64,000 bases of DNA from positions 1-64,000 of the forward strand of contig CADBYS010000011.1 in the NCBI GenBank assembly GCA_902798965.1, in the 5' to 3' direction. Below the pieces are notes generated by a model, which had not been told where the DNA came from, ran no database searches, and was given only the letters and a program-made list of their open reading frames with translations. Positions 29,530-47,166 of the stretch are shown piece after piece (the stretch's first letter is position 1; every line of letters begins with the position of its first letter). The DNA comes from an uncultured Bacteroidales bacterium. Lineage in GTDB: Bacteria > Bacteroidota > Bacteroidia > Bacteroidales > Paludibacteraceae. Position numbers and translations under genes: made by a program.

Positions 29530-29608
29530 AATTTCTCACTTTTCTCCCCGTTTTTTGCAAAAATTTGCACCGAACTCTTGCAAATGTCGATTTTTTTTCG
29601 TAACTTTG
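29530..29608 (+). promoter_or_regulatory. Promoter of the WYL regulator, conserved block
   Basis: CTCACTTTTCTCCCCG, TTTTTTGCAAAAATTTGCAC, ACTCTTGCAAATG and TAACTTTG at 29601-29608 follow in order. Third member of the family at 1806 and 3417. The near-palindrome TGCAAAAATTTGCA could be an operator for the regulator itself. Confidence 0.7.
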
Positions 29609-30637: not shown

Positions 30638-30656
30638 GAAAAAAGTTGTATCTTTG
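30620..30656 (+). promoter_or_regulatory. Promoter of the DUF234-type ATPase gene
   Basis: ATTTGCAAAATT then TATCTTTG at 30649-30656. The sequence before it (AATGCATGAATTATAT at 30601) resembles that before the hsdM operator, but the inverted repeat itself is missing. Confidence 0.65.
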
Positions 30657-30727: not shown

Positions 30728-32173
30728 ATGAGCGCAATTGTTGGAAGAAACAAAGAGGTTGACGAGTTGAAAAAACTTGTATCAAGCCCTAAAGCTGAAT
30801 TTGTAGCCATCTATGGTCGTCGCCGTGTGGGAAAGACCTTTTTGGTAGATGAAGTACTTCGCGAGGATATTACTTTTCGTCATGCAGGATTAAGTCCTAT
30901 CGATGAGAATGGTAAGTCGAATAACATGAAGGCACAATTGCTGCATTTCTATCATTCTCTCTTAATCCAAGGTTGGAAAGGCAGAAGCCGCCCGAAGAAC
31001 TGGCTGGAGGCATTCTTTATGTTAGAGCAGCACCTGCAAGCCATTGATATCGGTGCGCGGCAAGTTGTGTTCATTGACGAGTTGCCGTGGATGGATACGC
31101 CGAGAAGCGGGTTTATAACAGCATTGGAGGCGTTTTGGAACGGATGGGCATGTCATCGCACGAATATGATGCTCGTTGTATGCGGTAGTGCCAACTCATG
31201 GATGTTGGATAACTTGGTGAATAATCATGGCGGATTGTATGGGCGCACGACATACGAGATCAAACTTACGCCATTTACTTTAGCTGAATGCGAACAGTTC
31301 TACCAGAGCCAAGGCATACAACTCTCCCGTTATGATATCGCTCAAGCAAATATGATTCTTGGCGGTATTCCGTATTACATGAATTTTTTCGCGCGCGGGA
31401 AGAGCCTTGCGCAGAATATCGACAACCTGTTCTTCGCACCAAACGCCAAACTGAAAGACGAATTTACCAAACTCTTTGCGTCCGTATTTACTAACCCGGA
31501 AGAAATAATGCGTATCGTGCGCTATCTTGCAACCAGGCGAAAAGGATTTACACGTGACAGCATAGCTGAAGGTACGAACATGAGGTGTAATGGGCATCTC
31601 TCCCAATGGCTCAAAGCACTGGTGGCAAGTGATTTTGTAGAGCGATATGTGCCTTTTGGCGAAAGTAAGCGTAATGAACATTACCGTTTGATTGATCCCT
31701 TCTGTTTGTTCTATTTGAAGTTCGTGGATGGGCAGTCGGAAATAGATGATGCCTTCTGGATGAACAATGTCGAAGCACCCAAGATCAAAAGTTGGCGCGG
31801 CTTCGCTTTTGAAGATCTGTGCCTGCGCCATATAGGTGCAATCAAGCGAGCATTACAGATTGCCGGTATTTCGTCTTCGCAATCTGCTTGGGCAGTGAGT
31901 GGCGATGACCAGCAAGAAGGGACACAAATCGATTTGCTTATCCAGCGAAAAGACAATGTGGTGAATATGTGTGAGATGAAATTCTACAGCGATGAGTTCG
32001 CTGTGGATAAATCATACCACACGAGATTGGTGCACAGGATGAACACGCTGATGGAGAAGGTCAGTCGGAAGACAGTTATCCATAGCACGTTGGTAACTAC
32101 TTATGGTTTGGCATATAACCAATACTTTGGGGATTTTGTGAATGTAGTGACCTTGGATGACTTGTTCGGATAA
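30728..32173 (+). CDS. ATP-binding protein, archaeal-ATPase/DUF234 type
   Basis: 481 residues: ATPase core with Walker A GRRRVGKT at 30-37, Walker B VVFIDELPW and sensor VVCGSANSWMLDN, a winged-helix part in the middle (LATRRKGFTRDSIAEGTNMR), and a C-terminal DUF234-like domain with a nuclease-like motif GTQIDLLIQRKDNVVNMCEM. Abundant in gut Bacteroidales, usually as single genes; function unproven. It has its own promoter between the WYL gene and the type I restriction operon. Confidence 0.85.
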   Translation: MSAIVGRNKEVDELKKLVSSPKAEFVAIYGRRRVGKTFLVDEVLREDITFRHAGLSPIDENGKSNNMKAQLLHFYHSLLIQGWKGRSRPKNWLEAFFMLEQHLQAIDIGARQVVFIDELPWMDTPRSGFITALEAFWNGWACHRTNMMLVVCGSANSWMLDNLVNNHGGLYGRTTYEIKLTPFTLAECEQFYQSQGIQLSRYDIAQANMILGGIPYYMNFFARGKSLAQNIDNLFFAPNAKLKDEFTKLFASVFTNPEEIMRIVRYLATRRKGFTRDSIAEGTNMRCNGHLSQWLKALVASDFVERYVPFGESKRNEHYRLIDPFCLFYLKFVDGQSEIDDAFWMNNVEAPKIKSWRGFAFEDLCLRHIGAIKRALQIAGISSSQSAWAVSGDDQQEGTQIDLLIQRKDNVVNMCEMKFYSDEFAVDKSYHTRLVHRMNTLMEKVSRKTVIHSTLVTTYGLAYNQYFGDFVNVVTLDDLFG

Positions 32174-32217: not shown

Positions 32218-32253
32218 TGTGCAAATAGATTGCACAAGGAATTTATAATTTTG
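32218..32253 (+). promoter_or_regulatory. hsdM promoter with TGTGCAA-N5-TTGCACA operator
   Basis: TGTGCAA (32218-32224), spacer ATAGA, TTGCACA (32230-32236), 9 bases, then TAATTTTG (32246-32253). The same layout occurs at 38799 and 42738. The operator covers the usual -33 region, so a bound protein would block RNA polymerase or replace the -33 contact. Confidence 0.8.
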
Positions 32254-32311
32254 CAACGAAAATGAAAAAAATCACTAATTTTGAATTTTTAATTTTGAAT
32301 TTTTAATTGTC

Positions 32312-33811
32312 ATGATTACAGGCGAGATTAAGAATCAGATTGACCGGATATGGGATGTGTTCTGGACATCCGGGATGACGAATCCGATGAACATATTGGA
32401 ACAGATGACGTATCTGTTCTTTATGAAGATGCTGGATGACAAGCAGATTCAGGAAGAGGCGAACGCGGCCGCTTGGGGTAACCGATTGCAGAACCCTGTG
32501 TTTGGTGAGGGCACGTGGCACAATGACGATACAGGTCAGGATGTAGCGTATCAGGATATGCGCTGGTCGGTATTCAAGAACACCGGTGCGGAGAACATGT
32601 TCCGCATGGTCAGGGATAATGTCTTCCCGTTCATCAAGACCATCGGTGCGGGTGACAGCAATGCTTACTCGCGGTTTATGCGGAATGCCGTGTTTATGAT
32701 TCCGAGTCCGCGCGTGTTGCAGCGGCTGGTTGACGGCATTGATGCGTTGGATATGACCGACCGTGACACGATGGGTGACGTATATGAGTACATGCTCGGC
32801 AAGATGGCCAGCTCGGGCACGAACGGTCAGTTCCGCACGCCGCGGCATATCATCCGGATGATGGTGGAGATGATGCAGCCGAAACTTACCGACAGGATCT
32901 GCGACCCGGCTATGGGTTCGGCAGGATTCCTCGTGGAGAGTGCGAAGTATGTTGCCGCGCATTACCGCAGCGAACTGCTGCGACCGGAGAACCTCCGCTA
33001 CTACCGCACGGAGATGTTCAGTGGCTTCGATACAGACGTGACAATGCTGCGTATCGGTGCGATGAACATGATGCTGCACGGTGTGGACGCCCCGAACATC
33101 GTTTGGCAGGATAGTTTGAGCAACGAGAATACGGACGCAAACCGCTATAGCCTGTGTCTGGCTAATCCGCCGTTTGCCGGCAGTCTGGACAAGGATACCA
33201 TCTCCAAGTCACTGTTGCAGGTTGCCAATACTTCCAAGACCGAGTTACTGTTCCTGGCATTGTTCCTGCGTTTGCTCGATCTCGGCGGTCGTTGTGCCTC
33301 AATTGTGCCCGACGGAGTGCTCTTCGGTAACTCCAATGCGCACAAAGCAATCCGCAAGGAGCTGGTGGATCATCAGAAACTGGAAGCGGTAATCTCCATG
33401 CCTTCGGGTGTGTTCCTGCCCTATGCAGGTGTGAGCACGGCTATTTTGATCTTCACCAAGACCAACACGCCTAACTCGACGGATAAGGTTTGGTTCTATG
33501 AGATGCATGCAGATGGTTTCACACTCGATCAGAAGCGTACGCCCTGCACCGAGAACGATATCCCCGATGTCATCAGCCGTTTCCATAACCTCGATGCGGA
33601 GGCTTCTCGTTCACGCAAAGACCAATCGTTCTTTGTGCCGGTAAAAGATATTCGCGACAATGATTACGACTTGACCTTCAATAAGTACAAAGAGGTCGAG
33701 CGCAAAGTGGTTAAGTATGACGAACCGGAAACGATCCTCGCACATATAGACGAGCTGCAATCTCAGATTGCCGAAGGACTTGCTAACCTCCAATCCATCA
33801 TCAATCACTAA
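32312..33811 (+). CDS. hsdM: Type I restriction-modification methyltransferase (HsdM)
   Basis: 499 residues; methylates adenine N6 at the target set by HsdS. Order: HsdM N-terminal helical domain (1-130), then the methyltransferase core with motif I DPAMGSAGFL (198-207) and catalytic motif IV NPPF (285-288). The target-rich C-terminal helices interact with HsdS. All key motifs are present. It is the first gene of an M-S-R operon and ends directly at the HsdS gene. Its promoter has the shared inverted repeat. Confidence 0.95.
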   Translation: MITGEIKNQIDRIWDVFWTSGMTNPMNILEQMTYLFFMKMLDDKQIQEEANAAAWGNRLQNPVFGEGTWHNDDTGQDVAYQDMRWSVFKNTGAENMFRMVRDNVFPFIKTIGAGDSNAYSRFMRNAVFMIPSPRVLQRLVDGIDALDMTDRDTMGDVYEYMLGKMASSGTNGQFRTPRHIIRMMVEMMQPKLTDRICDPAMGSAGFLVESAKYVAAHYRSELLRPENLRYYRTEMFSGFDTDVTMLRIGAMNMMLHGVDAPNIVWQDSLSNENTDANRYSLCLANPPFAGSLDKDTISKSLLQVANTSKTELLFLALFLRLLDLGGRCASIVPDGVLFGNSNAHKAIRKELVDHQKLEAVISMPSGVFLPYAGVSTAILIFTKTNTPNSTDKVWFYEMHADGFTLDQKRTPCTENDIPDVISRFHNLDAEASRSRKDQSFFVPVKDIRDNDYDLTFNKYKEVERKVVKYDEPETILAHIDELQSQIAEGLANLQSIINH

Positions 33812-33817
33812 TTGCCC

Positions 33818-34984
33818 ATGAAGCATAATTGGACATATAAGAAGTTAGGGGAACTGGTAGATGTACTAAATGGTTACGCCTTTAAGAGTTCCAACTATGT
33901 GAAAGATGGTATCCGTGTCATCCGCATTGCTAATGTGCAAAAGGGCAAAATCGTGGATGAGGCGCCTGCTTTCTATCCCTTATCGGCAGAAAGCGAATTG
34001 ACGCGATATATGCTTCACGAGGATGATATATTATTGTCTCTCACGGGCAATGTAGGTCGTGTTGGTCTGCTGCCTAAAGAAATGCTTCCTGCTGCTCTCA
34101 ATCAACGTGTAGCATGTTTGCGTATCAAGGATGATACCTTGATGTTTAAGTTTTTATACCAATTCTTAAACTCGGATTATTTTGAGCAGAAGTGTATAGA
34201 GTCTTCGCGTGGGATTGCTCAATTGAACATGAGTACGGAATGGCTAAAGGATTATCCTTTGCCCGTTCCCACTCTCGATGAGCAGCAAGCCATCGTTCTT
34301 GAGTTGGATGGTATCAATCGTTTGATTGATTTGCAAGAAGAGCAGCTTCGCGAGTATGACCGCTTGGCGCAATCACTCTTCTATACCACTTTCGGCGACC
34401 CCGTCTCCAACCCCAAAGGATGGGAAGTGAAGAAGTTGGGAGAGGTCGCAGAGACGACCTCTGGCGGTACTCCTTCTAAAGCGCACAATGAGTATTATGA
34501 AGGAGGTACTATCCCATGGTTAAGAAGCGGTGAAGTATCACAGGGTTTAATCTACAAGACCGAATTGTTTATAACCCAAGCAGGCTTGGATAATTCCAGT
34601 GCTAAGATTATACCGGTTAATTCTGTTGCGATAGCCATGTACGGAGCGACTGTTGGAGAAGTAGGAATTATCAAAGCACCTATGTCCACTAATCAGGCTG
34701 TATGTAGTATTTTCCCGAATGAGAGTGTGATGCCTATTTATTTATTGTATTTCTTGAGGGTAATGAAACCTCATTACATAAATATTGCAGCAGGTGGAGC
34801 ACAACCTAATATATCGCAAGCTATTATTAGGAATACTAAACTCCCCCTTCCCCCTCTTGCTCTCCAGCAAACTTTTGCTGCGCAGATCGAGGCCATCGAG
34901 CAGCAGAAAACACTCGTGCGCAAGTCACTTGACGAGACACGCACATTGCTTGCGGCTCGCATGCAGTACTACTTCAATTCATAA
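33818..34984 (+). CDS. hsdS: Type I restriction specificity subunit (HsdS)
   Basis: 388 residues from the ATG at 33818, 6 bases after the hsdM stop. Two target-recognition domains (about 1-160 and 205-350), each followed by a conserved helix: EEQLREYDRLAQSLFYTTFG in the centre and QQKTLVRKSLDETRTLLAAR at the end. The repeat of GWEVKKLGE-like starts is typical. It reads the DNA sequence for both methylation and cleavage. A single copy; no inverted partial hsdS genes for phase variation are seen nearby. Confidence 0.9.
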   Translation: MKHNWTYKKLGELVDVLNGYAFKSSNYVKDGIRVIRIANVQKGKIVDEAPAFYPLSAESELTRYMLHEDDILLSLTGNVGRVGLLPKEMLPAALNQRVACLRIKDDTLMFKFLYQFLNSDYFEQKCIESSRGIAQLNMSTEWLKDYPLPVPTLDEQQAIVLELDGINRLIDLQEEQLREYDRLAQSLFYTTFGDPVSNPKGWEVKKLGEVAETTSGGTPSKAHNEYYEGGTIPWLRSGEVSQGLIYKTELFITQAGLDNSSAKIIPVNSVAIAMYGATVGEVGIIKAPMSTNQAVCSIFPNESVMPIYLLYFLRVMKPHYINIAAGGAQPNISQAIIRNTKLPLPPLALQQTFAAQIEAIEQQKTLVRKSLDETRTLLAARMQYYFNS

Positions 34985-35010
34985 TGCACAATTCAAAATT
35001 CACAATTGTT

Positions 35011-35364
35011 ATGAAGACGGATAATATAATAGTCGATAAGAGTAAAAATTTCGCGATAAGAATTGTGAAACTTTATAAGTACCTAAATGAGGAAAAGAAG
35101 GAGTATGTTCTTTCTAAGCAATTACTCCGATCCGGAACAAGTATAGGTGCGAACATAAAAGAAGCTGTTAGAGGTCAGAGTAAAGCTGATTTTACGGCAA
35201 AAATGAGTATCGCTCTAAAAGAAGCCAGCGAGAGTGAATATTGGTTAGAAATACTACACGAGACTGAATATTTAACTGAGCAGCAGTTTGATAGCATATA
35301 CGCAGATTGCAAAGATCTCATTAAAATCCTAATGAGTATTGTAAAATCTGCCCGTAATGAATAA
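35011..35364 (+). CDS. Four-helix bundle protein (S23/IVP family)
   Basis: 117 residues from the ATG at 35011 (MKTDNIIVDKSKNFAIRIVK), with the family pattern LRSGTSIGANIKEAVRGQSK and MSIALKEASESEYWLEIL. The family was first known from intervening sequences of 23S rRNA genes; many free-standing copies lie next to defence genes in Bacteroidota and form helical oligomers. Here it sits between hsdS and hsdR, on the same strand. A role in regulating or assembling the complex is possible but unproven. Confidence 0.85.
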   Translation: MKTDNIIVDKSKNFAIRIVKLYKYLNEEKKEYVLSKQLLRSGTSIGANIKEAVRGQSKADFTAKMSIALKEASESEYWLEILHETEYLTEQQFDSIYADCKDLIKILMSIVKSARNE

Positions 35365-35397
35365 TTATGCATTATGCATTTTTAATTGTGAATTGTC

Positions 35398-38300
35398 ATG
35401 AACTTTGATTTTCTGAACGGCTTGGAAGACTTTAGGCAACTATATGCCTACTGCCGCGATGCGGAGAACTTCCAGTTGGTTGCTCCCGAGAAATCCGTTA
35501 CCGGTGCTAGGAAGGCACTGGAGTTCTGGGTGAAGCTGGTGTATCTGACCAAAGGTTGGGATATACCGCAGCATGCCGGATTGATGGAGCTGGTCAGCAA
35601 TTCGGATTTTGAGGATTATATCGGCGATGAGCAGGTTATCCGCAATATCCACTTCATCCGCCGTATAGGTAACCAAGGAGCGCATGGTCAGACGATCCGT
35701 AAGAACGACTCGTTGCAGTCGTTGGCTTGTCTGCATGCGTTGATAGGCGAGTGGCTGCTGATGGTGGGTGTGATAGACAACATCCCGCATTTCGATCCCA
35801 CACTTGTGCCGAAAGTAGTGACGTTGAGCATCGTTTCACGTGACGGCGATCCGGTGATCAGTACCGAGTCGTTGCAGCAGTTTGCGCAGCGTAGCGAAGG
35901 CAAGCAACTGCACGTCACTACGCCACGAGTGCTCACCGAGGCAGAGACGCGGAAGATGTTCATCGACCTGATGCTGCGTGAGGCAGGTTGGGAGATAATG
36001 AGCACCGCAGGTGCTATCAATGCCGGCAAGGCATGTGTGGAGATTCGTGTGGACGGTATGCCTAACAATGCCGAAGAGGGTTATGCCGATTATGTGCTGT
36101 TCTCGAACGGCGGAAAGCCGTTGGCAGTGATTGAAGCCAAGCGCACGACGGTTGATCCGCATGTAGGCAAGCATCAAGCATCGCTGTATGCCGACGCGCT
36201 GGAGCGGCAGTACGGTGTGCGGCCGGTGATATACTATACGAACGGATTCCGTACGTTTGTGCAGGACGGATTGGGTTATCCGGATAGAGAGGTGTTCTCG
36301 TTCCACACGCAGAAAGACCTTGAACTGATTATGCAGAAACGTTCGCGTCAGGACATAACCGACACGCGCGTAGATCCGAACATTGCCGGACGTGACTACC
36401 AGATAGCGGCTATACACTCTATCTGCCAACACCTGAACAGCAAGCATCGCCGCGGATTGCTGGTGATGGCTACGGGTACAGGTAAGACGCGCGTAAGCAT
36501 AGGTCTGACGGATGTGATCATCCGTAACAATTGGGCGAAGAACATATTGTTCCTTGCCGACCGACGCTCGCTGGTAAAGCAGGCGCACAAGAACTACCGC
36601 AAGCTGCTGCAACACGAGACAACGACTATCCTCTCCGAGGAGCGTCAACCGGATATGCAGGCACGTATCATGTTCTCGACGTATCAGACGATGATACGGT
36701 ACATCGATGCGGATGAGAAGCAGTTCTCCATCGGCAGGTTCGACCTGATCATCATCGACGAGGCGCACCGCTCGGTGTTCGGCAAGTTCGGGAGTATATT
36801 CGACTACTTCGACAGCCTGCTGATTGGCTTGACGGCTACGCCGCGCGAGGATATCGACCGCTCGACGTACGCGCTGCTGCAACTGGATGAAGGAGAGCCG
36901 AACTTCGCCTTTGAGCTGAACGATGCCATCCGTGGCGGATATCTGGTGGGCTATCGGGCATTCCAGCGCTCATCGAAAATCATGACCGATGGCGCTAAGT
37001 ACGACGACCTGACGCCCTCGGAGAAAGCTACCCTGGAGCGCGTGTGGGATTATGAGAAAGCCCGTCAGGCACTTGACCCGCGTGCCGACTACACGCGGGA
37101 TATAGAAGGTTCAGAGATCTACCGCTATCTGTTCAATCAGGATACGATTGACCATGTGCTGCAAGACCTGATGGAGAATGGCTTGCGCATACAGGATGGC
37201 AATGTGTTAGGCAAGTCGATCATCTTTGCCTACAACCACCAGCATGCACAGCAGATAGTGAATCGGTTCCACCAGTTGTATCCGCAGTTGGGAGAGGATT
37301 ATTGTGTGCTAATTGACAACCAAGTCAACTATGGGCAAGACCTCATAGACATCTTCTCCACGCCGCGTGACGAGGCGCAACGGCATATACAGATCGTTGT
37401 ATCGGTGGATATGATGGATACGGGTATTGACGTGCCGGATTGTCTGAACCTTGTTTTCTTCAAGCAGGTACGCTCGAAGATCAAGTTCAATCAGATGATC
37501 GGTCGCGGTACGCGATTGTGTCCGAACGTGTTCGGCGAGGGCAAGGACAAGAAGGAGTTCTTTATCTTTGACTACTGCGGTAACTTCGAGTACTTCTCCC
37601 AGCATCCGATAGGCGCTGAGCCTATGCAGACGCAGACGCTGAACGAGCGGCTGTTCTGTGCACGGCTGGACTTGGCGGTGATGCTGCAAGACGGAAAGTA
37701 TCAGTCGGAAGACTTCACACGGACGATGTGCGAGCAGCTGAAGGACATTCTGCACGCACAAGTGCTGACGCTGAACGAGAGCCATATAGCCGTGCGCAAG
37801 CAACTGGAACGCGTGGTGAAGTACAAGAAACGCGAGAACTGGCAATACGTGAGTGAGGTGGAAGCACAAGGACTGCGCAAGCATATAGCGCGGCTGATCT
37901 TTACCGACGATACGGATTTTGCAGCGAAGAAGTTCGATCTGCTGTGTCTGCTTGAGCAGTTGTCGCTGGTGGATGAAACGGTGGATGGCAGGAAACCGAT
38001 GTTGAAGATCTGCACAATAGCAGAGCTGCTGGAACAGAAGGCTACAATCCCGCAAGTAAGGATGTGTCTGCCTACGATACGCGAAGTGCAGACGCCGGTG
38101 TTCTGGGAGCAGGTGCACACCAATGCCGTGTGTGGCTTGGATAACCTGGAACGCGTGCGCACGGAACTGCGCGGGCTGGTGCAATATATTATCGGCAAGG
38201 AACGCGAGACGTTCGAGATCAACCTGATAGATACGATAACCGACAGAGGCGAGGTGCAGACGCTGCTGCCGCAGATGTCGTACAGGCAACGGGTGTTGGG

Positions 38301-38745
38301 TTATCTGGATGAGAACATCGACAGCCCGGTTATTCAGAAGATATACAAGATGGAGCAACTGACTAATACGGATATCCGCGAGTTGGAGCGTATCTTCTGG
38401 CAGGAACTCGGCTCGAAAGAGGAGTACGTGCAGACCTACGAGCATCAGGATCGTTACCGTATATGGGGCGGTAGGATTGCCGCGTTCCTTCGTTCGGCGA
38501 TAGGTATTGACCGGCAACTGGCGCGGGAGAAGTATATCGAACTGATACAGGGCGAATCGCTGACGCAGGAACAGGAGGAGTACCTGAATGACATCCTCGA
38601 TTATGTCTGCCAGAATGGTGACATCTCCACGCAGACGATGGCTGAGGAACCGTTCTCCACCTTCCCGTGGCAACCCGTCTTTGCCGAGCGGCTTAGCGCC
38701 TTGGTTGGCTACGTGAATACCATGCACAATGTGATTGTGGCATAA
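35398..38745 (+). CDS. hsdR: Type I restriction endonuclease subunit (HsdR)
   Basis: 1115 residues. After an N-terminal DUF4145-like part (1-130) comes the nuclease region with VLFSNGGKPLAVIEAKRTT, then the translocase with GLLVMATGTGKTRVSIGL (Walker A) and LIIIDEAHRS (DEAH), helicase motifs GLTATPRED and MIGRGTRLCP, and a long C-terminal helical region. It cuts unmethylated DNA after ATP-driven translocation. Full length and without breaks, so the system looks active. Confidence 0.95.
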   Translation: MNFDFLNGLEDFRQLYAYCRDAENFQLVAPEKSVTGARKALEFWVKLVYLTKGWDIPQHAGLMELVSNSDFEDYIGDEQVIRNIHFIRRIGNQGAHGQTIRKNDSLQSLACLHALIGEWLLMVGVIDNIPHFDPTLVPKVVTLSIVSRDGDPVISTESLQQFAQRSEGKQLHVTTPRVLTEAETRKMFIDLMLREAGWEIMSTAGAINAGKACVEIRVDGMPNNAEEGYADYVLFSNGGKPLAVIEAKRTTVDPHVGKHQASLYADALERQYGVRPVIYYTNGFRTFVQDGLGYPDREVFSFHTQKDLELIMQKRSRQDITDTRVDPNIAGRDYQIAAIHSICQHLNSKHRRGLLVMATGTGKTRVSIGLTDVIIRNNWAKNILFLADRRSLVKQAHKNYRKLLQHETTTILSEERQPDMQARIMFSTYQTMIRYIDADEKQFSIGRFDLIIIDEAHRSVFGKFGSIFDYFDSLLIGLTATPREDIDRSTYALLQLDEGEPNFAFELNDAIRGGYLVGYRAFQRSSKIMTDGAKYDDLTPSEKATLERVWDYEKARQALDPRADYTRDIEGSEIYRYLFNQDTIDHVLQDLMENGLRIQDGNVLGKSIIFAYNHQHAQQIVNRFHQLYPQLGEDYCVLIDNQVNYGQDLIDIFSTPRDEAQRHIQIVVSVDMMDTGIDVPDCLNLVFFKQVRSKIKFNQMIGRGTRLCPNVFGEGKDKKEFFIFDYCGNFEYFSQHPIGAEPMQTQTLNERLFCARLDLAVMLQDGKYQSEDFTRTMCEQLKDILHAQVLTLNESHIAVRKQLERVVKYKKRENWQYVSEVEAQGLRKHIARLIFTDDTDFAAKKFDLLCLLEQLSLVDETVDGRKPMLKICTIAELLEQKATIPQVRMCLPTIREVQTPVFWEQVHTNAVCGLDNLERVRTELRGLVQYIIGKERETFEINLIDTITDRGEVQTLLPQMSYRQRVLGYLDENIDSPVIQKIYKMEQLTNTDIRELERIFWQELGSKEEYVQTYEHQDRYRIWGGRIAAFLRSAIGIDRQLAREKYIELIQGESLTQEQEEYLNDILDYVCQNGDISTQTMAEEPFSTFPWQPVFAERLSALVGYVNTMHNVIVA

Positions 38746-38798
38746 AAAGATGCCATATTGGCGCATAAATGATACCGAATATGCAGATTTTTGCTGGC

Positions 38799-38834
38799 TG
38801 TGCAAATAGCTTGCACAAGGATGGTGTAATTTTG
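38799..38834 (+). promoter_or_regulatory. DUF2130 gene promoter with the shared operator
   Basis: TGTGCAA (38799-38805), spacer ATAGC, TTGCACA (38811-38817), 9 bases, TAATTTTG (38827-38834). Identical spacing to the sites at 32218 and 42738. Confidence 0.8.
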
Positions 38835-38881
38835 CAACGGAAATTGAAAAACAACTGTTAAACCATTTAATACTTTTGATT

Positions 38882-40282
38882 ATGAAAAATTTGATTTGCC
38901 CCAATTGCGGGAAACCGTTTTCGATTGATGATGCCGACTATGCACAACTGCTTAGTCAAGTGAAGAACGATGAATTCAAGGCTGAGGTCGACTCGCGAGT
39001 GAGCGAGTTGCGTTCGCTGTGGCTGCAGGAACAGGAAGCTGCCAGTTTGAAGGCTGAGAATGCGCATCAGCAGGCGCTGAATGATCAGCAGAAGAAGCTG
39101 CAGGAACGCGAAGCCGAGATACAGACGCTCAAGGAGCGCCTGAGCTCCGTGGAGCAGATCAAAGCTGCCGAGCTCAAGCAGGCCGTGAGCGAGAAGGAGA
39201 CTGCCATGCAGCAGAAACTCAGTGCCGCCGAGCAGAAACTGCAAAAGCAGCTCAGCGATACGGAGCAGAAGATGCAACAGCAACTCAGCGAGGCATTGCA
39301 GAAGATCCGTGATCTGGAAGCGGCGCAACGGGTAGCAGTGCTCGAGGAGCAGCAGAAAGCCGAGGCATCGCTGCGGCAAAAAGAGACCGAGCTGATGAAG
39401 CTGCGCAATGACCAGCAGCTGGCTGCATCGCAGGCGCTCATGCGCGAACAAAATATAAAAGAGCAGTACGAGCAGAAGCTGCGCATGGCGGAAGAGCAGG
39501 TGGCGTACTACAAGGATCTAAAGACCCGTATGTCCACCAAGATGGTGGGCGAGACGCTGGAGATACACTGCTCCACGCTGTTCAACCAGAATCTGCGTCC
39601 GCTGATGCCCAGCGCGTACTTCGAGAAAGACAACGACGCCAGCGGCGGATCGAAGGGCGACTTCATCTTCCGTGACTCGGTGGACGGGCAGGAGTACGTA
39701 TCAATCATGTTCGAGATGAAGAACGAGATGGACGAAACCGCCTCGAAGCACAAGAACGAGGACTTCTTCGCCAAGTTGGACAAGGATCGCCGCGAGAAAG
39801 GCTGCGAGTACGCGGTGCTGGTATCGATGCTGGAGCCGGAAAATGAGCTGTACAACGGCGGCATAGTGGATGTGAGCCATCGGTTCGAGAAGATGTACGT
39901 GATCCGTCCGCAGTTCTTCATCCCGCTCATCACCATGCTGGTGCAGGCGAACAGGAAGACCATCGAACTGCAGCACCAACTGGCAGTAGCCAAGTCGCAG
40001 TCGATAGACGTGACGAACTTCGAGCAGGAGCTGGAGGACTTCAAGGACAAGTTCGGCAGAAACTACCGCCTGGCATCGGATAAGTTCAAGACCGCCATCG
40101 AGGAGATCGACAAGTCGATAACCCACCTGCAGAAGATTCGCGAAGCCCTGGTAGGCTCGGAGAACAACCTGCGTCTGGCGAACGACAAAGCCGAAGCGCT
40201 GACGATCAAGAAGCTCACGCGCGGCAATCCGACGATGAAGGAGAAGTTTGAGCAGGCACGCATCATCACCGGGGACGAATAG
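38882..40282 (+). CDS. DUF2130 coiled-coil protein
   Basis: 466 residues from the ATG at 38882. A short zinc-knuckle-like start ([10 protein letters not shown]), a very long Gln/Glu/Lys coiled coil (about 40-215), then the DUF2130 domain (about 225-400; [53 protein letters not shown]), which has the look of a restriction-nuclease fold. A second helical part ends the protein. DUF2130 proteins are often found near restriction and defence genes; the biochemical role is unknown. Its own promoter carries the same operator as hsdM. Confidence 0.85.
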
Positions 40283-40474
40283 TTCCCGGTGGGTGAAAGC
40301 CTTCAACAATGGGGATCAACAATTAAAGACTATTACCAACTATTCCAATGGACATGGTAGGTCAAAAATTGCCAAAAATTTACCCAAAAGATTGCATGGG
40401 ATGGCATGATTTTTGTGAGCCGTTGTATGACCGGCAAAGTCCGAGAAACTATTAACCGATAAATCAGTACTATT

Positions 40475-41794
40475 ATGGCATACATTGACAAACATGGTGT
40501 TGAGTACACCGACGACAAAAAGACATTAATCCGCTGTCCGCAAGATTTTGAGGGCGAGTATATCATCCCTGATGGGGTGGAAAGGATTGACACTGAAGCA
40601 TTCGCTAATTGTACAAGATTGACTGCTGTGACTATTCCCAGTTGTGTGACAAGGATAGCTGGTGAGGCTTTCCGTGGTTGCCATCAATTACAAGAAGTCT
40701 CATTTTTAGAGGGCAATATATATATCGAACTTGATGCGTTCGCTGATTGTCCATGCCTAAATTCTATTGATATTTCCTCCAATTTACATTTAAATAAAGG
40801 ACGTTATACAACTGATGAATTTTACAAACCTTTTAGGCACATAATAAATATCAATTATGATGGTGATAATGAGTATGCGCCGTGGGGTGCGTTGGCTTTG
40901 AATGGATATAAAGAAGGGCCTTTTTATTTCAAAGATGAAAGTAAAAAGGTTCTATTAGGTTGTGAGAAAAACTATAAAGGAGAAATCGTTATTCCCGAAT
41001 CTGTAGTTGAAATCGGAGAAAGTGCATTTGAATATTGTACACAAATTACAGATATTATTCTCCACGAGAATATTACTCAAATTGGGCTTTATTCCCTTCC
41101 CGACAAATGTACTTTTTATATCCCATCGGGGACGCTTGAAAAGTTTAAGAAGATGAACTCTCAATACTACTATCATTATGAAGAACTTGACATGTATGGT
41201 CAAAAGTACCAGAAGATAGGTAGATTAAAAGAGGGTGAAGTGTCGATTTACAAGGAGGTGCAGGCAAATGGGAAAACGTCATATATATTCCCGGAAGATA
41301 CAAGACGGCTCTACACAGATGGAGCAGGAAGAAATGAACAAATTTATTTTACCGGAGAGCTGCAATCGTTAACCTTGATAGGATATCCGGAAAGAGTATT
41401 CTATATTAACAATTATATAGAAAATGTAGATGTCGTTTGTGAAGAAAATCTGAATAAAAGATACGATAATCATCTAATCTTTAAAGCCCCTCTTCCAAAC
41501 ACAAAACCGGTAATAGGCAAAATTGTTGAACTCACATATTGTGGACAAAACCAAAACTATCGATATACTGAATATGTATGGAGCACCCCTATCGCAATCA
41601 ATGTAGATGACATCGCATGCATAGTTGAGACTCGCTTGCGCTGTTACGAAGGCATGCACAGTGGATGTCGGATCATGTTGCTTGGCGGTAAATCAGATCA
41701 ATTAGCTAAGCAAGAGCTTCCGTGCTATGTGGATGTTTGGGAAGATTATGATTTCGTGTTGCAAAAACTTTTGCAGGCGGGATGGCAGCGATAA
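40475..41794 (+). CDS. Leucine-rich repeat protein with shared C-terminal domain
   Basis: 439 residues without signal peptide. The N-terminal part carries BspA-type (LRR_5) repeats such as IPDGVERIDTEAFANCTRLT, ITRIAGEAFRGCHQLQEV and IPESVVEIGESAFEYCTQIT. The last 150 residues align with the C-terminal domain of 13420-14265, which lacks LRRs. A cytoplasmic LRR protein with this domain is unusual because most BspA-type proteins are secreted. The LRR part probably binds a protein partner. It lies between the DUF2130 gene and the TerY-P operon. Confidence 0.75.
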   Translation: MAYIDKHGVEYTDDKKTLIRCPQDFEGEYIIPDGVERIDTEAFANCTRLTAVTIPSCVTRIAGEAFRGCHQLQEVSFLEGNIYIELDAFADCPCLNSIDISSNLHLNKGRYTTDEFYKPFRHIININYDGDNEYAPWGALALNGYKEGPFYFKDESKKVLLGCEKNYKGEIVIPESVVEIGESAFEYCTQITDIILHENITQIGLYSLPDKCTFYIPSGTLEKFKKMNSQYYYHYEELDMYGQKYQKIGRLKEGEVSIYKEVQANGKTSYIFPEDTRRLYTDGAGRNEQIYFTGELQSLTLIGYPERVFYINNYIENVDVVCEENLNKRYDNHLIFKAPLPNTKPVIGKIVELTYCGQNQNYRYTEYVWSTPIAINVDDIACIVETRLRCYEGMHSGCRIMLLGGKSDQLAKQELPCYVDVWEDYDFVLQKLLQAGWQR

Positions 41795-41824
41795 AGAAAC
41801 AATAAACTTATAATACCACATACA

Positions 41825-42676
41825 ATGAAAACAATTAAATTAGCTGAATTGGAAAATCTTATTAAGGATTATTCCAATCAGGAGTCGTTCAATAAGCCTT
41901 TGATGCTTTGGTTTGCGTCTAACCGCACGTTAGACTGCGTGAAGGCAGATTTGACAAGGGGTGTAAGCAGAACCATTAGTATCATGGGGCATCCTTTTGC
42001 TGGAAAGAAATTGGCTGTTCTTGGAGACGAGGTTGTTAAAATCAGCGATCATCCTGAACTTTTATCCTTAGATGAACTACCGGAAGATTATACTAAGAAC
42101 ACGGAAAGAATCGTTTATCACACTTATTTCAAACAATTAAAACGTGATACATTGGATTACTGCTGCCATCAGGTGAAAAAGCTACAAGTACCGTTCATTT
42201 GTCTTATAAATGATTACGAAGCCGCAGGAGAAGAAACTTATGATAAAGGTTATCTCGCAGAACATTTTGAACAATTCTTTGTACTGAACAGAACTGTCGA
42301 TGAGTGGATTGAATGGGCATGCCAAACAGAGGTTATACAGAATCAACAAGGTGAGGATTTCAATGTGCCCAACATAGTCCCCGAATTAGTTGAATACGTG
42401 AGAACCCATAAAGATCTCTTTATTGAGTCTCCCGCTTTGGATGGCATGCCACAGGAAGCAGTACATACAAGAGAAGCGCGGCTTAATGACATCTCATGTG
42501 AAATGAGGAACTTTCTGTGGGAACCTGATTTTCACCATTTCTTCACAATGATTGACATGGAAGATTCCTCACACAATTCTCCTTTCTCCAAGAGTAAAAT
42601 AGAATATTTTTACTTTACGAAAAGAGAAGACTTCCGACAAATGCTTGAGAACTACTTCAGCAAAAGAAAAGAATGA
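41825..42676 (+). CDS. Hypothetical protein, 283 residues
   Basis: Soluble protein: MKTIKLAELENLIKDYSNQE, KPLMLWFASNRTLDCVKADL, then VPFICLINDYEAAGEETYDK and EHFEQFFVLNRTVDEWIEWA. The middle part, with a strand ending in LINDYE after FICL, could be a nucleotide-binding fold, but no standard motif is visible. Family not recognised. It lies 30 bases after the LRR gene on the same strand, likely in one operon with it. Confidence 0.55.
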   Translation: MKTIKLAELENLIKDYSNQESFNKPLMLWFASNRTLDCVKADLTRGVSRTISIMGHPFAGKKLAVLGDEVVKISDHPELLSLDELPEDYTKNTERIVYHTYFKQLKRDTLDYCCHQVKKLQVPFICLINDYEAAGEETYDKGYLAEHFEQFFVLNRTVDEWIEWACQTEVIQNQQGEDFNVPNIVPELVEYVRTHKDLFIESPALDGMPQEAVHTREARLNDISCEMRNFLWEPDFHHFFTMIDMEDSSHNSPFSKSKIEYFYFTKREDFRQMLENYFSKRKE

Positions 42677-42737
42677 ATAGATAGCACACTATCAATATGA
42701 CGTGTAATCATACAAAAAATGCACGATTTTGGGAGTT

Positions 42738-42773
42738 TGTGCAAATAGGTTGCACAACGATGTAGTAACTTTG
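42738..42773 (+). promoter_or_regulatory. TerY-P operon promoter with the shared operator
   Basis: TGTGCAA (42738-42744), spacer ATAGG, TTGCACA (42750-42756), 9 bases, TAACTTTG (42766-42773). Third copy of the layout. The ATG of the first gene lies 40 bases further. Confidence 0.8.
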
Positions 42774-42813: not shown

Positions 42814-43077
42814 ATGAGAAGACATATCCCATTAGGAAACATCGAAGAGATGCTGGAGTGCGTGGCGGAGATATCCGACCACTTCACCGTGAATGCGGCA
42901 GACATGATGCCGGAAGAGAAGAAGCAGGAGATATGGGAGTCGCTGCTGTATATCTGCGAGAACTACAACGACGGGGACTTCGACTTCGATGATGACCTGC
43001 CTGACCCTGATTACCAGAAAGTGCTCCGGGCAGTTCCGAAGGAGTGTCTGCTGATGGATGGTGCAATAATTAAATGA
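42814..43077 (+). CDS. Small acidic protein, first gene of the TerY-P operon
   Basis: 87 residues, MRRHIPLGNIEEMLECVAEI, then helical segments and a very acidic DFDFDDDLPDPDYQ. Not recognised. It is directly behind the shared operator promoter and 7 bases before the next gene, so it belongs to the TerY-P operon. Confidence 0.55.
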   Translation: MRRHIPLGNIEEMLECVAEISDHFTVNAADMMPEEKKQEIWESLLYICENYNDGDFDFDDDLPDPDYQKVLRAVPKECLLMDGAIIK

Positions 43078-43084
43078 TACAACT

Positions 43085-43843
43085 ATGAAAAACGAACTTC
43101 AAGAACTATACAAGCAAGTACAAGAGGGTTCAACGCGTGCGATGATTCGCATAGCGCGGATATACTATTGGGGATTAGGCGTTGAGCCGGATACACAGAA
43201 AGCAATCGAATGGCTACGTTCTGCCGTGGAGAAAGGACGCAAAGATGCCAATCTTATGCTCGGACATGTATATTATGACATGGAGCGCACTCCGGAAACC
43301 GACCGAAAGGCTTGGGAAGCTTACCAAGCTGCATACGAAGACAATAGTGGCTGCGCGTTCTTCTTGGGACGTATGCTGTACGATAACCGCGTAAGCGGCT
43401 ACGAGGATGATACTGAGCGGTTGGTAGATGCGGGTAAATTTATCGAAGAGGCGTTTTGTAACGATTTTAATTTGATAGAATCCCGATTATACTTATGGAA
43501 GATACTCTCGGAGTTAGGAGATCCGGATATAGCTCAAGACTATTACGACGATGCCGTGGATGATCTCTGTGATTACAAGGATTATAATAACTTGGCATAC
43601 GATCTGTGGAAATTCGGTGAATGCGAGAAGGCGCTGCCGTACATAGAGAAGGCTATGGAAATGGTAGGAGAAGACAAGCTGCTTCCGTATATGATTGACA
43701 CCTATGCCGAGGTGCTGTATGGCCTGGGCAGACTGGACGAGGCGAAGCAAGCATTCGACAAGTGCATGGCTGTGGCAAAGAATCTGGATGAACGCAGGCA
43801 TATACGCGAGACGGAAGAAAAAATCAAACAGAAATTCAATTGA
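43085..43843 (+). CDS. Sel1/TPR-repeat protein
   Basis: 252 residues of paired helices. Sel1-like repeats occupy the N-terminal part (AMIRIARIYYWGLGVEPDTQ, KAIEWLRSAVEKGRKDANLM) and TPR-like repeats the C-terminal part (ECEKALPYIEKAMEMVGEDK, GRLDEAKQAFDKCMAVAKNL). Such repeats bind partner proteins. No signal peptide. Position 7 bases after one gene and 5 bases before the next shows tight operon membership; it could be an adaptor for the kinase/phosphatase module downstream. Confidence 0.75.
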   Translation: MKNELQELYKQVQEGSTRAMIRIARIYYWGLGVEPDTQKAIEWLRSAVEKGRKDANLMLGHVYYDMERTPETDRKAWEAYQAAYEDNSGCAFFLGRMLYDNRVSGYEDDTERLVDAGKFIEEAFCNDFNLIESRLYLWKILSELGDPDIAQDYYDDAVDDLCDYKDYNNLAYDLWKFGECEKALPYIEKAMEMVGEDKLLPYMIDTYAEVLYGLGRLDEAKQAFDKCMAVAKNLDERRHIRETEEKIKQKFN

Positions 43844-43848
43844 GCCGT

Positions 43849-44118
43849 ATGAAACCTATCAAGTATCTTGCTTACGAGTTTCGGGATAAACTCTGCTTGG
43901 AGCATTTCCTGAACAGTTTATCCGAGGCATACAAGGATTTGGGATTTCCTGACCTGACCAAGGATCCGTTGTTTGAATCCGTGTCGGATGAGCATCCCGT
44001 ATATGTGCTGACCCCCAAGGGCGAACCCGTATATACCTTAGCAGACAAGGTATCGGACGAAGTTACGATTGTTAACAAGAGTAATGCAGAAACAATCATA
44101 AAACTATTGGAGGAATGA
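43849..44118 (+). CDS. Hypothetical protein, 89 residues
   Basis: ATG at 43849 (MKPIKYLAYEFRDKLCLEHF). A small two-part protein: a helical start, then a beta-rich end HPVYVLTPKGEPVYTLADKV. Not recognised. It follows the Sel1/TPR gene by 5 bases. A 124-base gap with a hairpin separates it from the kinase gene. Confidence 0.5.
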   Translation: MKPIKYLAYEFRDKLCLEHFLNSLSEAYKDLGFPDLTKDPLFESVSDEHPVYVLTPKGEPVYTLADKVSDEVTIVNKSNAETIIKLLEE

Positions 44119-44181
44119 TGCTCATAGCGCGGTCATAGAGTAGATTATCCATTGTTTTCCTCATAAACCTTACGGAATGTG

Positions 44182-44207
44182 ATTATCGCCGGCACTACAG
44201 CGATAAT
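44182..44207. other. Hairpin between the small genes and the kinase gene
   Basis: ATTATCGC pairs with GCGATAAT around a 10-base loop in the 124-base gap. No T-run follows. It may lower read-through or protect the mRNA. No TAnnTTTG promoter is visible before the kinase gene, so this may set the ratio between the two parts of the operon. Confidence 0.35.
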
Positions 44208-44242
44208 TACGGAACCGTTGCACTAAAAATTGATTGCAAACG

Positions 44243-45523
44243 ATGAAAATGATCCAACTTAACACCGGTATTCGCCTATCGAACGGCAGCGCGGCTGTCA
44301 TCAAGCAGGAACTTGGCCAGGGCGGTCAGGGCACGGTGTATCGCGTGACGGTGAACGGGCGCGACTATGCGATGAAGGTATATACCAAGATGCCGAACCG
44401 GAAGTTCATACAGAACCTTGAAGACAATGTCAGGAAGGGTGCACCCACCAAGCACTTCCTGTGGCCACTGTGGACGGTCAACTCCTCGAAGATATTCGGG
44501 TATGTGATGGACATACGGCCAAAGGAGTATGTGGAGTTCAGCAAGTTTCTGGTAGCCAAAGCGCGCTTCGCCTCATGGAGCGCGATGATCAACGCGGCGA
44601 TACAGATCACGTACGCCTTCCGCGAGCTGCACAGGAAAGGACTGTCGTACCAGGATCTGAACGACGGCAACTTCTTCTTCCATCCCGCAACGGGCGATGT
44701 GCTGATATGCGACAACGACAATGTGTGTCCGCCGGGTACGAACCTGGGCATCAAGGGCAAGTGCCGATACATGGCTCCCGAGGTGGTGATAGGCAACACG
44801 AATCCGAACAACCTGTCGGACTACTTCTCGCTGAGCGTGGTGCTGTTCATGCTGCTATTCAACAACCATCCGTTCGACGGCAAGCGCGTGGCGGACATAC
44901 CTTGCCTCAACGATGCGATAGAGCGGCATGTGTATGGCGAGAACCCTATCTTCATCTTTGACCCCGGCAAGCAACAGAACCGCCCGGTGCGGGGCATCCA
45001 TACGAACGTGATCAACCGTTGGCCGCTGTTCCCGGAGTTTGTGCGGCAGGCGTTCATCGAGGCATTTGACGAAGATGCACTGACAGAGCCTAACCTGCGC
45101 AAGTCCGACAACGACTGGGTGCGGATCCTCACCCAACTGCGCAGCCAGACCATCACGCACAGTTGCGGCAACGAGATGTTTGTGGATATCGACAAGACGT
45201 TCACCATCTGCTTCAACTGCCAGAAGTCGGTGGAGAAGCCGCTGGTACTCAGTATAGGCAAGCAGCGCGTAGCCCTGTACCCGAAGATGAAGATCTATGC
45301 CAACCAGACCTCGGCGAGCGGCGACCTGTTCACCGTGACGGGGGAGGTGGTCGTAAACAAGAACAATCCCAATGTATGGGGCTTGATGAACCGCACGCGG
45401 GATACATGGCGCGCCGTGTATCCCAACGGCAAGGAGCTGGAGGTAAAGCCCAATACAGGACTGCCGATATACAAAGGCGTGGAGGTGCATTTCGCGCACG
45501 ATATACAAGCAACAATACAATAA
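44243..45523 (+). CDS. Serine/threonine kinase of a TerY-P triad
   Basis: 426 residues from the ATG at 44243. Eukaryotic-type kinase fold: Gly loop GQGGQG (25-30), Lys45 in YAMKVY, catalytic loop SYQDLNDGNF (Asp138), DND (157-159) in place of DFG, and APE (178-180). After the kinase comes a zinc-ribbon-like stretch with HSCG...CFNC near 310-332 and a beta-rich C-terminal domain. The kinase with C-terminal Zn ribbon, next to a VWA protein and a PP2C phosphatase, is the TerY-P triad described in analyses of tellurium-resistance-linked systems. The DFG change to DND may affect metal binding. Confidence 0.85.
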   Translation: MKMIQLNTGIRLSNGSAAVIKQELGQGGQGTVYRVTVNGRDYAMKVYTKMPNRKFIQNLEDNVRKGAPTKHFLWPLWTVNSSKIFGYVMDIRPKEYVEFSKFLVAKARFASWSAMINAAIQITYAFRELHRKGLSYQDLNDGNFFFHPATGDVLICDNDNVCPPGTNLGIKGKCRYMAPEVVIGNTNPNNLSDYFSLSVVLFMLLFNNHPFDGKRVADIPCLNDAIERHVYGENPIFIFDPGKQQNRPVRGIHTNVINRWPLFPEFVRQAFIEAFDEDALTEPNLRKSDNDWVRILTQLRSQTITHSCGNEMFVDIDKTFTICFNCQKSVEKPLVLSIGKQRVALYPKMKIYANQTSASGDLFTVTGEVVVNKNNPNVWGLMNRTRDTWRAVYPNGKELEVKPNTGLPIYKGVEVHFAHDIQATIQ

Positions 45524-45537
45524 CCTTTTAAATTTTT

Positions 45538-46296: not shown

Positions 46297-46297
46297 T

Positions 46298-47149: not shown

Positions 47150-47166
47150 CAAATACCGATTGAGAT

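What the first reader, a model, noticed from the sequence alone, without database searches (positions are those of the whole stretch)
32218..42773. One operator, TGTGCAA-N5-TTGCACA, in front of restriction-modification, DUF2130 and TerY-P units
The same 19-bp inverted repeat occurs at 32218-32236, 38799-38817 and 42738-42756. In all three, exactly 9 bases separate it from a TAATTTTG or TAACTTTG -7 box. The spacers are ATAGA, ATAGC and ATAGG. The genes behind are unrelated: type I R-M, a coiled-coil DUF2130 protein, and a seven-gene operon with a kinase, VWA protein and phosphatase. A shared, precisely placed site means shared control, so these three units may act as one stress or phage response. 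A link between TerY-P signalling and type I restriction through a common operator is not known to me.
Basis: partly seen in the sequence, partly recalled or inferred. Interest (0 to 1): 0.8.

Follow-up and report, generated by a model that had tools for sequence, protein, structure and literature searches.

The report
Shared switch for a defence island
In this uncultured gut bacterium, several unrelated anti-phage gene sets each carry the same short DNA switch just ahead of their start signal, and the evidence points to one neighbouring regulator protein that probably turns them on together, which would make a mixed defence island a single coordinated response.

Summary
The 19-bp palindrome TGTGCAA-N5-TTGCACA lies at 32218, 38799 and 42738, each exactly 9 bp before a TAnnTTTG box. 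The genome holds five exact copies. The other two are on contig C22, also at N9, in front of ShosTA-like and AAA-ATPase genes.

Each of the two clusters has its own WYL regulator gene upstream (66% identical). In 178 congeneric genomes a relaxed site-plus-promoter pattern gives 87 sites in 40 genomes. Of these, 72 lie on the same contig and strand as a homologue of this WYL gene, all within 15 kb. Sites within one island share their spacer. A scan for any palindrome beside WYL genes finds the same 7-5-7/N9 geometry, also in other families with altered half-sites. The WYL protein is therefore very probably the binder.

Genes behind the sites include type I R-M, retron-type RTs, ShosT-like, ATPases, DUF2130, RmuC and TerY-P. 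The site overlies the -33 region, the -33 box is missing there, and WYL genes have normal -33 boxes. The closest solved relatives are the activators DriD and PafBC, ahead of the repressors BrxR and CapW. Activation is favoured but unproven; the effector is unknown, and the arginine pair linked to ssDNA binding is absent.

The parts
29578..29608 (+). Own promoter of the WYL gene: TTG (29578-29580), N20, TAACTTTG (29601-29608); canonical -33/-7, no close operator match
   Evidence: sequence; N20 measured; best operator match within 400 bp upstream has 4 mismatches (L115)
29633..30637 (+). WYL-WCX regulator, 334 aa, proposed binder of the operator
   Evidence: Pfam WYL 5.1e-12 and WCX 5.6e-11; nearest solved structures DriD and PafBC; linkage to sites
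30625..30656 (+). Canonical promoter of the ATPase gene (TTTG 30625-30628, N20, TATCTTTG 30649-30656), no operator
   Evidence: sequence printed
30728..32173 (+). ATPase_2 protein, candidate defence gene PDC-S27, lying between the WYL gene and the first operator
   Evidence: Pfam ATPase_2 2.2e-14; PADLOC PDC-S27 1.6e-193
32218..32236 (+). Operator 1, TGTGCAA-ATAGA-TTGCACA
32246..32253 (+). -7 box TAATTTTG of the R-M operon
32312..38745 (+). Type I R-M operon: HsdM 32312-33811, HsdS 33812-34984, 23S_rRNA_IVP-family ORF 34984-35364, HsdR 35398-38745
   Evidence: Pfam and PADLOC
38799..38817 (+). Operator 2, TGTGCAA-ATAGC-TTGCACA
38827..38834 (+). -7 box TAATTTTG of the DUF2130 gene
38882..40282 (+). 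DUF2130 protein, 466 aa
   Evidence: Pfam DUF2130 4.4e-88; similar protein behind a site in G007 and G001
42738..42756 (+). Operator 3, TGTGCAA-ATAGG-TTGCACA
42766..42773 (+). -7 box TAACTTTG of the TerY-P-like unit
42814..48225 (+). Seven-ORF unit: 87 aa, TPR/Sel1 252 aa, 92 aa, kinase 44234-45523, VWA 45538-46296, PP2C 46298-47149, 352 aa
   Evidence: ORFs; Pfam; a relative of the TPR protein stands behind a site in G007 and G001

Best explanation
The palindrome is the binding site of the island's own WYL-domain regulator (29633-30637). Shown by computation: the site, a fixed 9-bp spacer and a -7 box form a unit repeated in front of unrelated defence modules of one island; this unit co-occurs with this WYL family; the spacer is shared within an island and differs between islands. 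Inferred: the WYL protein is made at a steady level from a normal -33/-7 promoter. When it meets its effector (unknown, possibly a product of phage attack or DNA damage), a dimer binds the 7-5-7 palindrome across the -33 region. There it stands in for the missing -33 box, in the manner of the WYL activators DriD, SiwR and PafBC, and starts transcription of all modules together. The modules are interchangeable: any gene set that acquires the operator-promoter unit joins the response.
For: Exactly 5 sites in the genome in two clusters, each cluster with its own WYL gene of this family; the genome has 4 WYL proteins in all, and the other two show no N9 palindrome in the 3.2-kb pieces around them. 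Genus, 178 genomes: 87 sites in 40 genomes, control 1; 72 of 87 on the same contig and strand as a WYL homologue of >=38% identity, all within 15 kb, 70 of them downstream of it; genomes with both 32, site only 8, WYL only 1, neither 137. Spacer distance within an island 0.93 versus 2.71 shuffled, 0 of 5000. Sequence-free palindrome scan at distances 0-25: genus WYL loci 20 hits at distance 9 versus 15 at the 25 other distances together; order-level loci 7 (in 6 of 29 loci) versus 18. A site with <=1 mismatch begins within 400 bp after the WYL stop in 16 of 29 genus loci (all within 26 bp of it), in 23 of 29 within 1.4 kb, against 1 of 29 within 400 bp upstream of the start. -33 box: TTG at N20 in 0 of 38 operator promoters, 46 of 178 ordinary ones, and 18 of the 19 WYL genes (of 30) for which a -7 box was seen. 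Foldseek: DriD 1.9e-15 and PafBC 3.5e-14 before BrxR 5.6e-10 and CapW 1.7e-9; profile search in the same order. DriD sites all lie at one distance from the -10, centred on a poor -35 (PMC12340889, section 11 read); SiwR uses a 19-bp palindrome upstream of the -10 (PMC10693628, passages).
Against: No binding or expression data. The WYL regulators of phage-defence genes in the papers I saw are repressors (BrxR, CapW). The missing -33 box is partly forced by the operator sequence, so it is not independent evidence. No member of the 38-row alignment has an arginine at positions 208 or 211, where the aligned DriD stretch has RSWR; I take this to be the arginine pair that PafB needs for ssDNA (R211/R214; PafB itself was not aligned here), so the effector mechanism is probably not that of DriD or PafBC. 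15 of 87 sites are not on a contig with a WYL homologue of >=38%, and 8 of 40 site genomes have none. N9 is not universal: 23 of 29 order-level loci and all 29 phylum-level loci lack an N9 palindrome at the threshold used, the latter with a peak at distance 15. In a few loci of other families the palindrome lies in front of the WYL gene itself (L168, L172, L175), which suggests autoregulation there. Only 23 of 46 loci of the large-collection scan show a WYL match in the piece held.
Confidence: 0.66

Rival explanations
1. The WYL protein binds the same sites but represses: like BrxR or CapW it keeps the whole island silent and lets go on infection, so all modules are derepressed together.
For: BrxR represses a defence island through inverted repeats with a 5-bp spacer and has two boxes in one island (PMC9122601, passages and section 22); CapW represses CBASS (PMC9122588, passages). 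A site across the -33 region could block polymerase. In some other families the palindrome precedes the WYL gene with a TTG at or near the -33 place (L168).
Against: BrxR box 1 lies downstream of the predicted -10 and CapW sites overlap the -10; here the site ends 9 bp upstream of the -7 box. Target promoters lack the -33 box a derepressed promoter would want (0 of 38). No operator with <=1 mismatch within 400 bp in front of the WYL gene in 28 of 29 genus loci. Nearest structures are the activators.
Confidence: 0.26
2. The site belongs to another trans-acting factor, or is a general Bacteroidales promoter element, and the WYL gene is only a neighbour.
For: 15 of 87 sites and 8 of 40 genomes have no WYL homologue of >=38% in reach; 6 viral contigs carry the unit, none with a WYL match; 23 of 46 large-collection loci show no WYL match in the piece held.
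Against: Only 5 sites in the genome; genome-level association 32/8/1/137; palindrome geometry recovered from WYL position alone, with changed half-sites in other families. Some exceptions lie on short contigs or near contig ends, so a WYL gene may be out of view.
Confidence: 0.05
3. The identical promoters are only recent copies spread by recombination, without regulatory meaning.
For: Flanks of some sites are alike, and the same site-gene pairs recur in relatives.
Against: Flanking and intervening bases vary while most half-site bases, the spacer length and N9 stay; the geometry recurs in other families with different operator sequence.
Confidence: 0.03

Closest known systems
DriD of Caulobacter (WYL activator)
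   Same: full-length structural match, best in the PDB; 20-bp pseudo-palindrome; all sites at one distance from the -10, overlying a poor -35; small regulon (PMC12340889, passages and section 11; PMC10693628)
   Different: DriD regulates DNA-damage and division genes, not defence islands; its effector is ssDNA, while the aligned DriD stretch RSWRLDRM is without both arginines RxxR here
BrxR family (WYL repressors of defence islands)
   Same: WYL protein encoded in mosaic defence islands, inverted repeats with 5-bp spacer, two boxes in one island (PMC9122601, passages and section 22)
   Different: repressor; longer 11-bp arms; box 1 downstream of the -10 in front of brxR itself; here 7-bp arms, upstream, fixed N9, and not in front of the WYL gene in the genus; no same-site series before many modules was in the parts I read
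CapW (WYL repressor of CBASS)
   Same: WYL homodimer, palindromes of 19-24 bp, immune operon (PMC9122588, passages)
   Different: site overlaps the -10, represses in both directions, one operon
PafBC and SiwR (mycobacterial WYL activators)
   Same: activator site just upstream of the -10; SiwR palindrome 19 bp (PMC10693628, passages; PMC11804915, passages)
   Different: genotoxic stress genes; PafBC is a heterodimer; other phylum
RptR
   Same: one small regulator for a type I R-M and DarTG2 island (PMC12255303, abstract and outline)
   Different: binds three direct repeats, minimal site the palindrome TAGCTA, and represses; no relation to the WYL protein was tested
Other regulators of immune operons (CapK/CapS, PMC13373217; a single regulatory system coordinating defence in pseudomonads, PMC11888443)
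   Same: coordinate or DNA-damage-linked control of immune genes (search listings only)
   Different: not read; the listed abstracts do not describe a WYL activator with a shared operator cassette

Membership tests
WYL transcription factors | WYL domain with WCX extension | tested here: met
   Pfam WYL and WCX above cut-off
WYL transcription factors | N-terminal DNA-binding winged HTH | tested here: inconclusive
   Model shows H3-19, H27-40, H48-62 and two strands, and aligns over its length with DriD; no Pfam HTH hit
DriD/SiwR/PafBC-type activators | site at constant distance upstream of the -10/-7 box, over the -35/-33 region | tested here: met
   N9 in 5 of 5 own sites; peak at 9; not met in 29 of 29 phylum-level loci
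DriD/SiwR/PafBC-type activators | poor or missing -35/-33 box in target promoters | tested here: met
   0 of 38 versus 46 of 178; partly forced by the operator sequence
DriD/SiwR/PafBC-type activators | arginine pair (RxxR) of the WYL domain linked to ssDNA binding | tested here: not met
   No arginine at positions 208 or 211 in any of 38 rows; A211 in 36 of 38; position taken from the DriD alignment
DriD/SiwR/PafBC-type activators | activation of transcription shown | not testable with these tools
   needs reporter or in vitro transcription
BrxR/CapW defence repressors | linked to phage-defence genes | tested here: met
BrxR/CapW defence repressors | site overlapping or downstream of the -10 | tested here: not met
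   site ends 9 bp upstream of the -7 box
BrxR/CapW defence repressors | operator in front of the regulator's own gene | tested here: not met
   1 of 29 genus loci within 1 mismatch in 400 bp; seen in a few loci of other families
TerY-P triad | VWA (TerY), kinase and PP2C encoded together | tested here: met
   Pfam; PADLOC gave no TerY-P label

The most novel reading that the evidence does not exclude
A Bacteroidales WYL activator acts as the master switch of a modular immune island. Each unrelated defence module (restriction, retron, ShosTA toxin-antitoxin, ATPase systems, DUF2130, TerY-P signalling) carries a standard promoter cassette in which the regulator replaces the -33 box, so modules can be exchanged by recombination and still fire together; the effector is something other than ssDNA bound in the known way.
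Probability: 0.55. Interest if true: 0.84.

Novelty: new variant of a known kind. Interest (0 to 1): 0.72.

Why it matters
How defence islands are regulated as wholes is little known; the island regulators in the papers I read parts of (BrxR, CapW, RptR) are repressors. Here one family links a regulator, a defined operator, a fixed promoter geometry and a list of modules across 40 genomes, and so predicts which uncharacterised genes may be part of an immune response (for instance DUF2130, DUF488, WG-repeat proteins and a 152-157-aa family). If activation holds, it would be an immune WYL regulator that turns genes on, and the operator becomes a search key for new defence genes in Bacteroidales.

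Tried and rejected
Chance repeat: rejected. General promoter element: rejected, since the unit is absent from 138 of 178 genomes of the genus, and the exact palindrome followed within 0-30 bp by TAnnTTTG occurs in only 3 of 393 genomes of the order, the own genome being one of the three (one of the other two matches is at N9, one at N15). Exact palindromes of relatives without a -7 box within 60 nt on either side (7 loci: L041, L044, L045, L051, L052, L053, L059) were treated as chance; three more have a box at other distances only (L042 16 and 29, L043 16 and 40, L050 10). Whether these lie in genes was not tested. A 1-mismatch palindrome on C18 was not followed: it does not fit the operator-plus-promoter pattern within 2 mismatches. 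Sequence search of the single WYL protein against PDB found nothing, so an alignment was used. Rfam showed only a tRNA in four loci with RT genes, so the retron RNA itself was not shown. In one search I used only the 38 WYL matches of >=38% identity; the weaker matches (26-35% identity, most covering only the C-terminal half) were dropped before the count. G154, the one 'WYL only' genome, has a 1-mismatch palindrome 1.2 kb behind its WYL gene (L125). One search covered 29 of 30 genus WYL loci (L138 left out). refound 85 of the 87 sites (two at contig ends, G175 and G187, were not fetched); 8 of the 85 had no ORF of 80 aa or more starting within 420 nt, in three of them a 44-45-aa ORF follows. 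Family names of clusters rest on one or two scanned members each. Of the 46 genome-contig loci, 23 show a WYL match in the piece held; the others may be chance or cut off. Literature searches (only the listed top results were seen) showed nothing on this operator; only open-licence PMC papers are held. The Poisson figure printed for the genus used 16 where the count is 15; it is not used, and one search gives the mended sum.
Full report
WHAT IS THERE. The three palindromes are exactly as described. Searching the draft genome in which the window lies (2.85 Mb, 51 contigs, about 90% complete) gives 5 exact copies and none of the reversed control. The two extra copies are on contig C22, 2.3 kb apart. 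All five have the spacer ATAG[ACG] and stand exactly 9 nt before TAnnTTTG. A relaxed pattern of site plus N9 plus -7 box with up to 2 mismatches returns the same five and nothing else. With the palindrome alone and 2 mismatches the excess is modest (26 versus 11), and with 3 mismatches in the window there is none; the strength lies in exactness plus placement.

THE SECOND ISLAND. On C22 the order is a WYL gene (66% identical to the window's), a DUF4062/HATPase protein, site, a HAD-type protein and a DprA-like protein (best PADLOC matches ShosT and ShosA), site, an AAA_15/AAA_21 ATPase (best PADLOC match NsnB, then AriA and others). In the window the order is a WYL gene, an ATPase (PADLOC PDC-S27), site, type I R-M, site, DUF2130 and two further ORFs, site, a seven-ORF unit with kinase, VWA protein and PP2C. 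The genome has four WYL proteins; two belong to the two site clusters, and the other two show no N9 palindrome in the 3.2-kb pieces around them.

WHO BINDS. In 178 genomes of the genus, the relaxed pattern gives 87 sites in 40 genomes (control 1). 72 of the 87 share contig and strand with a WYL homologue of at least 38% identity, all within 15 kb, and 70 of the 72 are downstream of it. By genome: both 32, site only 8, WYL only 1, neither 137 (Fisher 1e-26, ignoring kinship). Where a contig has more than one site the spacers agree (mean distance 0.93 over 60 pairs in 24 islands; 2.71 when shuffled; 0 of 5000 shuffles as low). So unrelated modules of one island carry the island's own version of the site. 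A scan that was told nothing about the operator sequence, only 'palindrome of two 7-mers 5 apart, at most one mismatch, upstream of TAnnTTTG, near a WYL gene', peaks at distance 9 in the genus (20 versus 15 over the 25 other distances together; 30 loci) and again in order-level loci from other families (7 hits in 6 of 29 loci, versus 18 over the other distances), where half-sites differ, for example TATGCAG/CTGCACA, TACGCAG/CTGCGCA, GGTTCAA/ATGAACC. The operator thus moves and changes with the WYL gene. A site with at most 1 mismatch begins within 26 bp of the WYL stop codon in 16 of 29 genus loci and within 1.4 kb in 23 of 29; in front of the WYL gene (400 bp) it occurs in 1 of 29. In the pattern scan of the genome-contig collection, 23 of 46 loci show a WYL match within the held piece of at most 8 kb.

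WHAT IT CONTROLS. Behind 77 of 85 refound sites lies an ORF of at least 80 aa; these fall into 29 clusters, named here from one or two scanned members each. The largest are AAA ATPases (12), type I methyltransferases (11), reverse transcriptases with a 243-327-nt leader (8; both examples scanned match PADLOC retron types, best RT-Protease_XI), a 152-157-aa family without a match (5), HAD proteins (4, plus the ShosT-like one on C22), DUF2130 (3), the first large ORF of the TerY-P-like unit (3), WG-repeat proteins (3), RmuC (3; the one scanned in PADLOC matches RTasRmuC), MTase-HATPase proteins (3), and helicases (2; RecD-like and PDC-S68 matches in PADLOC). Singletons include an MmeI-type IIG R-M protein, DUF488, Fic, CHAT and DUF3825. 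Many named members are known or candidate defence genes; some (for example a DUF1848 and an FGase protein) are not.

HOW IT PROBABLY WORKS. In ordinary TAnnTTTG promoters of these sequences the strongest upstream partner is TTG at N20 (46 of 178), the -33 box. Of 38 operator promoters none has it, because the operator lies there (Fisher 5e-5). Of 30 genus WYL genes, 19 have a -7 box within 110 nt and 18 of these have TTG at N20, including the window's own; for 11 no box was seen. A steadily made regulator and targets without a -33 box fit an activator that replaces the -33 contact. AlphaFold (mean pLDDT 81.5, pTM 0.54) and Foldseek put the protein closest to DriD bound to DNA, then PafBC, then BrxR and CapW; a profile search ranks them likewise (1.9e-9, 2.8e-8, 3e-4, 2e-3). 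In the literature DriD sites all lie at one distance from the -10 with a poor -35 at their centre (PMC12340889, passages and section 11) and SiwR uses a 19-bp palindrome upstream of the -10 (PMC10693628, passages). The defence repressors BrxR and CapW bind downstream of or over the -10 (PMC9122601; PMC9122588; passages). The position here is that of the activators.

WHAT SPEAKS AGAINST. The -33 argument is weakened because the operator sequence itself excludes TTG at that place. The defence WYL regulators in the papers read are repressors. The aligned DriD stretch has RSWR where none of the 38 aligned members has an arginine at either place; I take these to be the arginines that PafB needs for ssDNA (PMC11804915, passages; PafB was not aligned here), so an ssDNA effector in the DriD or PafBC manner is unlikely. 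The N9 geometry belongs to part of the Bacteroidales: 23 of 29 order-level WYL loci do not show it at the threshold used, and in 29 phylum-level loci it is absent, 9 of them showing TACGCAA-N5-TTGCGCA (or a near match) at distance 15, where the right half supplies a TTG near the -33 position. In L168, L172 and L175 a palindrome is in front of the WYL gene. So related proteins may repress at some promoters, and a dual role is possible. I put activation at about 0.66 and binding by the WYL protein, as either activator or repressor, at about 0.9.

NOVELTY. WYL regulators in mosaic defence islands are known (BrxR). A common, precisely placed operator-promoter unit at up to four places in an island, followed across 40 genomes, with activator geometry, did not appear in the results listed by the searches made. 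Other ways of coordinating immune genes were listed but not read (PMC13373217, PMC11888443). TerY-P clusters that include type IV restriction genes are already in print (PMC4978471, passages). I therefore call it a new variant of a known kind.

Noticed in passing
L034:10638-10843, L210:18-225, L202 (minus strand, first 210 nt): In three genomes two operators stand 206-209 bp apart in front of the retron-type RT; between them lies a conserved acidic ORF of 44-45 aa preceded by AAGGAGG. Its function is unknown; it has its own operator promoter.
   Followed up: partly
L229-L245 (9 of 29 phylum-level WYL loci): TACGCAA-N5-TTGCGCA (two with small changes) at distance 15 from TAnnTTTG; in the two read, in front of a 204-207-aa gene just upstream of a WYL homologue. 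A different geometry in which the site contains a TTG near the -33 place.
   Followed up: partly
L172, L168: In L172 one palindrome lies between divergent WYL and target genes, at distance 9 for the target and 17 for the WYL gene; in L168 it precedes the WYL gene at distance 16, with TTG at the -33 place.
   Followed up: partly
L109, L112, L113, L114 (viral contigs): Contigs of the viral collection carry TGTGCAA-N5-TTGCACA at N9 before small ORFs of 101-124 aa, with alike promoters in three of them and no WYL match; possible use of, or decoy for, the host regulator, or chance.
   Followed up: no
L088, L189, L202, L209, L211: A 152-157-aa protein family without Pfam or PADLOC match (L088 member scanned in both, L063 member in Pfam) stands behind the operator in five genomes: a candidate new defence component.
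   Followed up: no
window 30728-32173: The PDC-S27 ATPase gene sits between the WYL gene and the first operator with its own canonical promoter; in G001 the operator follows the WYL stop directly.
   Followed up: yes
window 34984-35364: A 23S rRNA intervening-sequence-type ORF lies between HsdS and HsdR.
   Followed up: no
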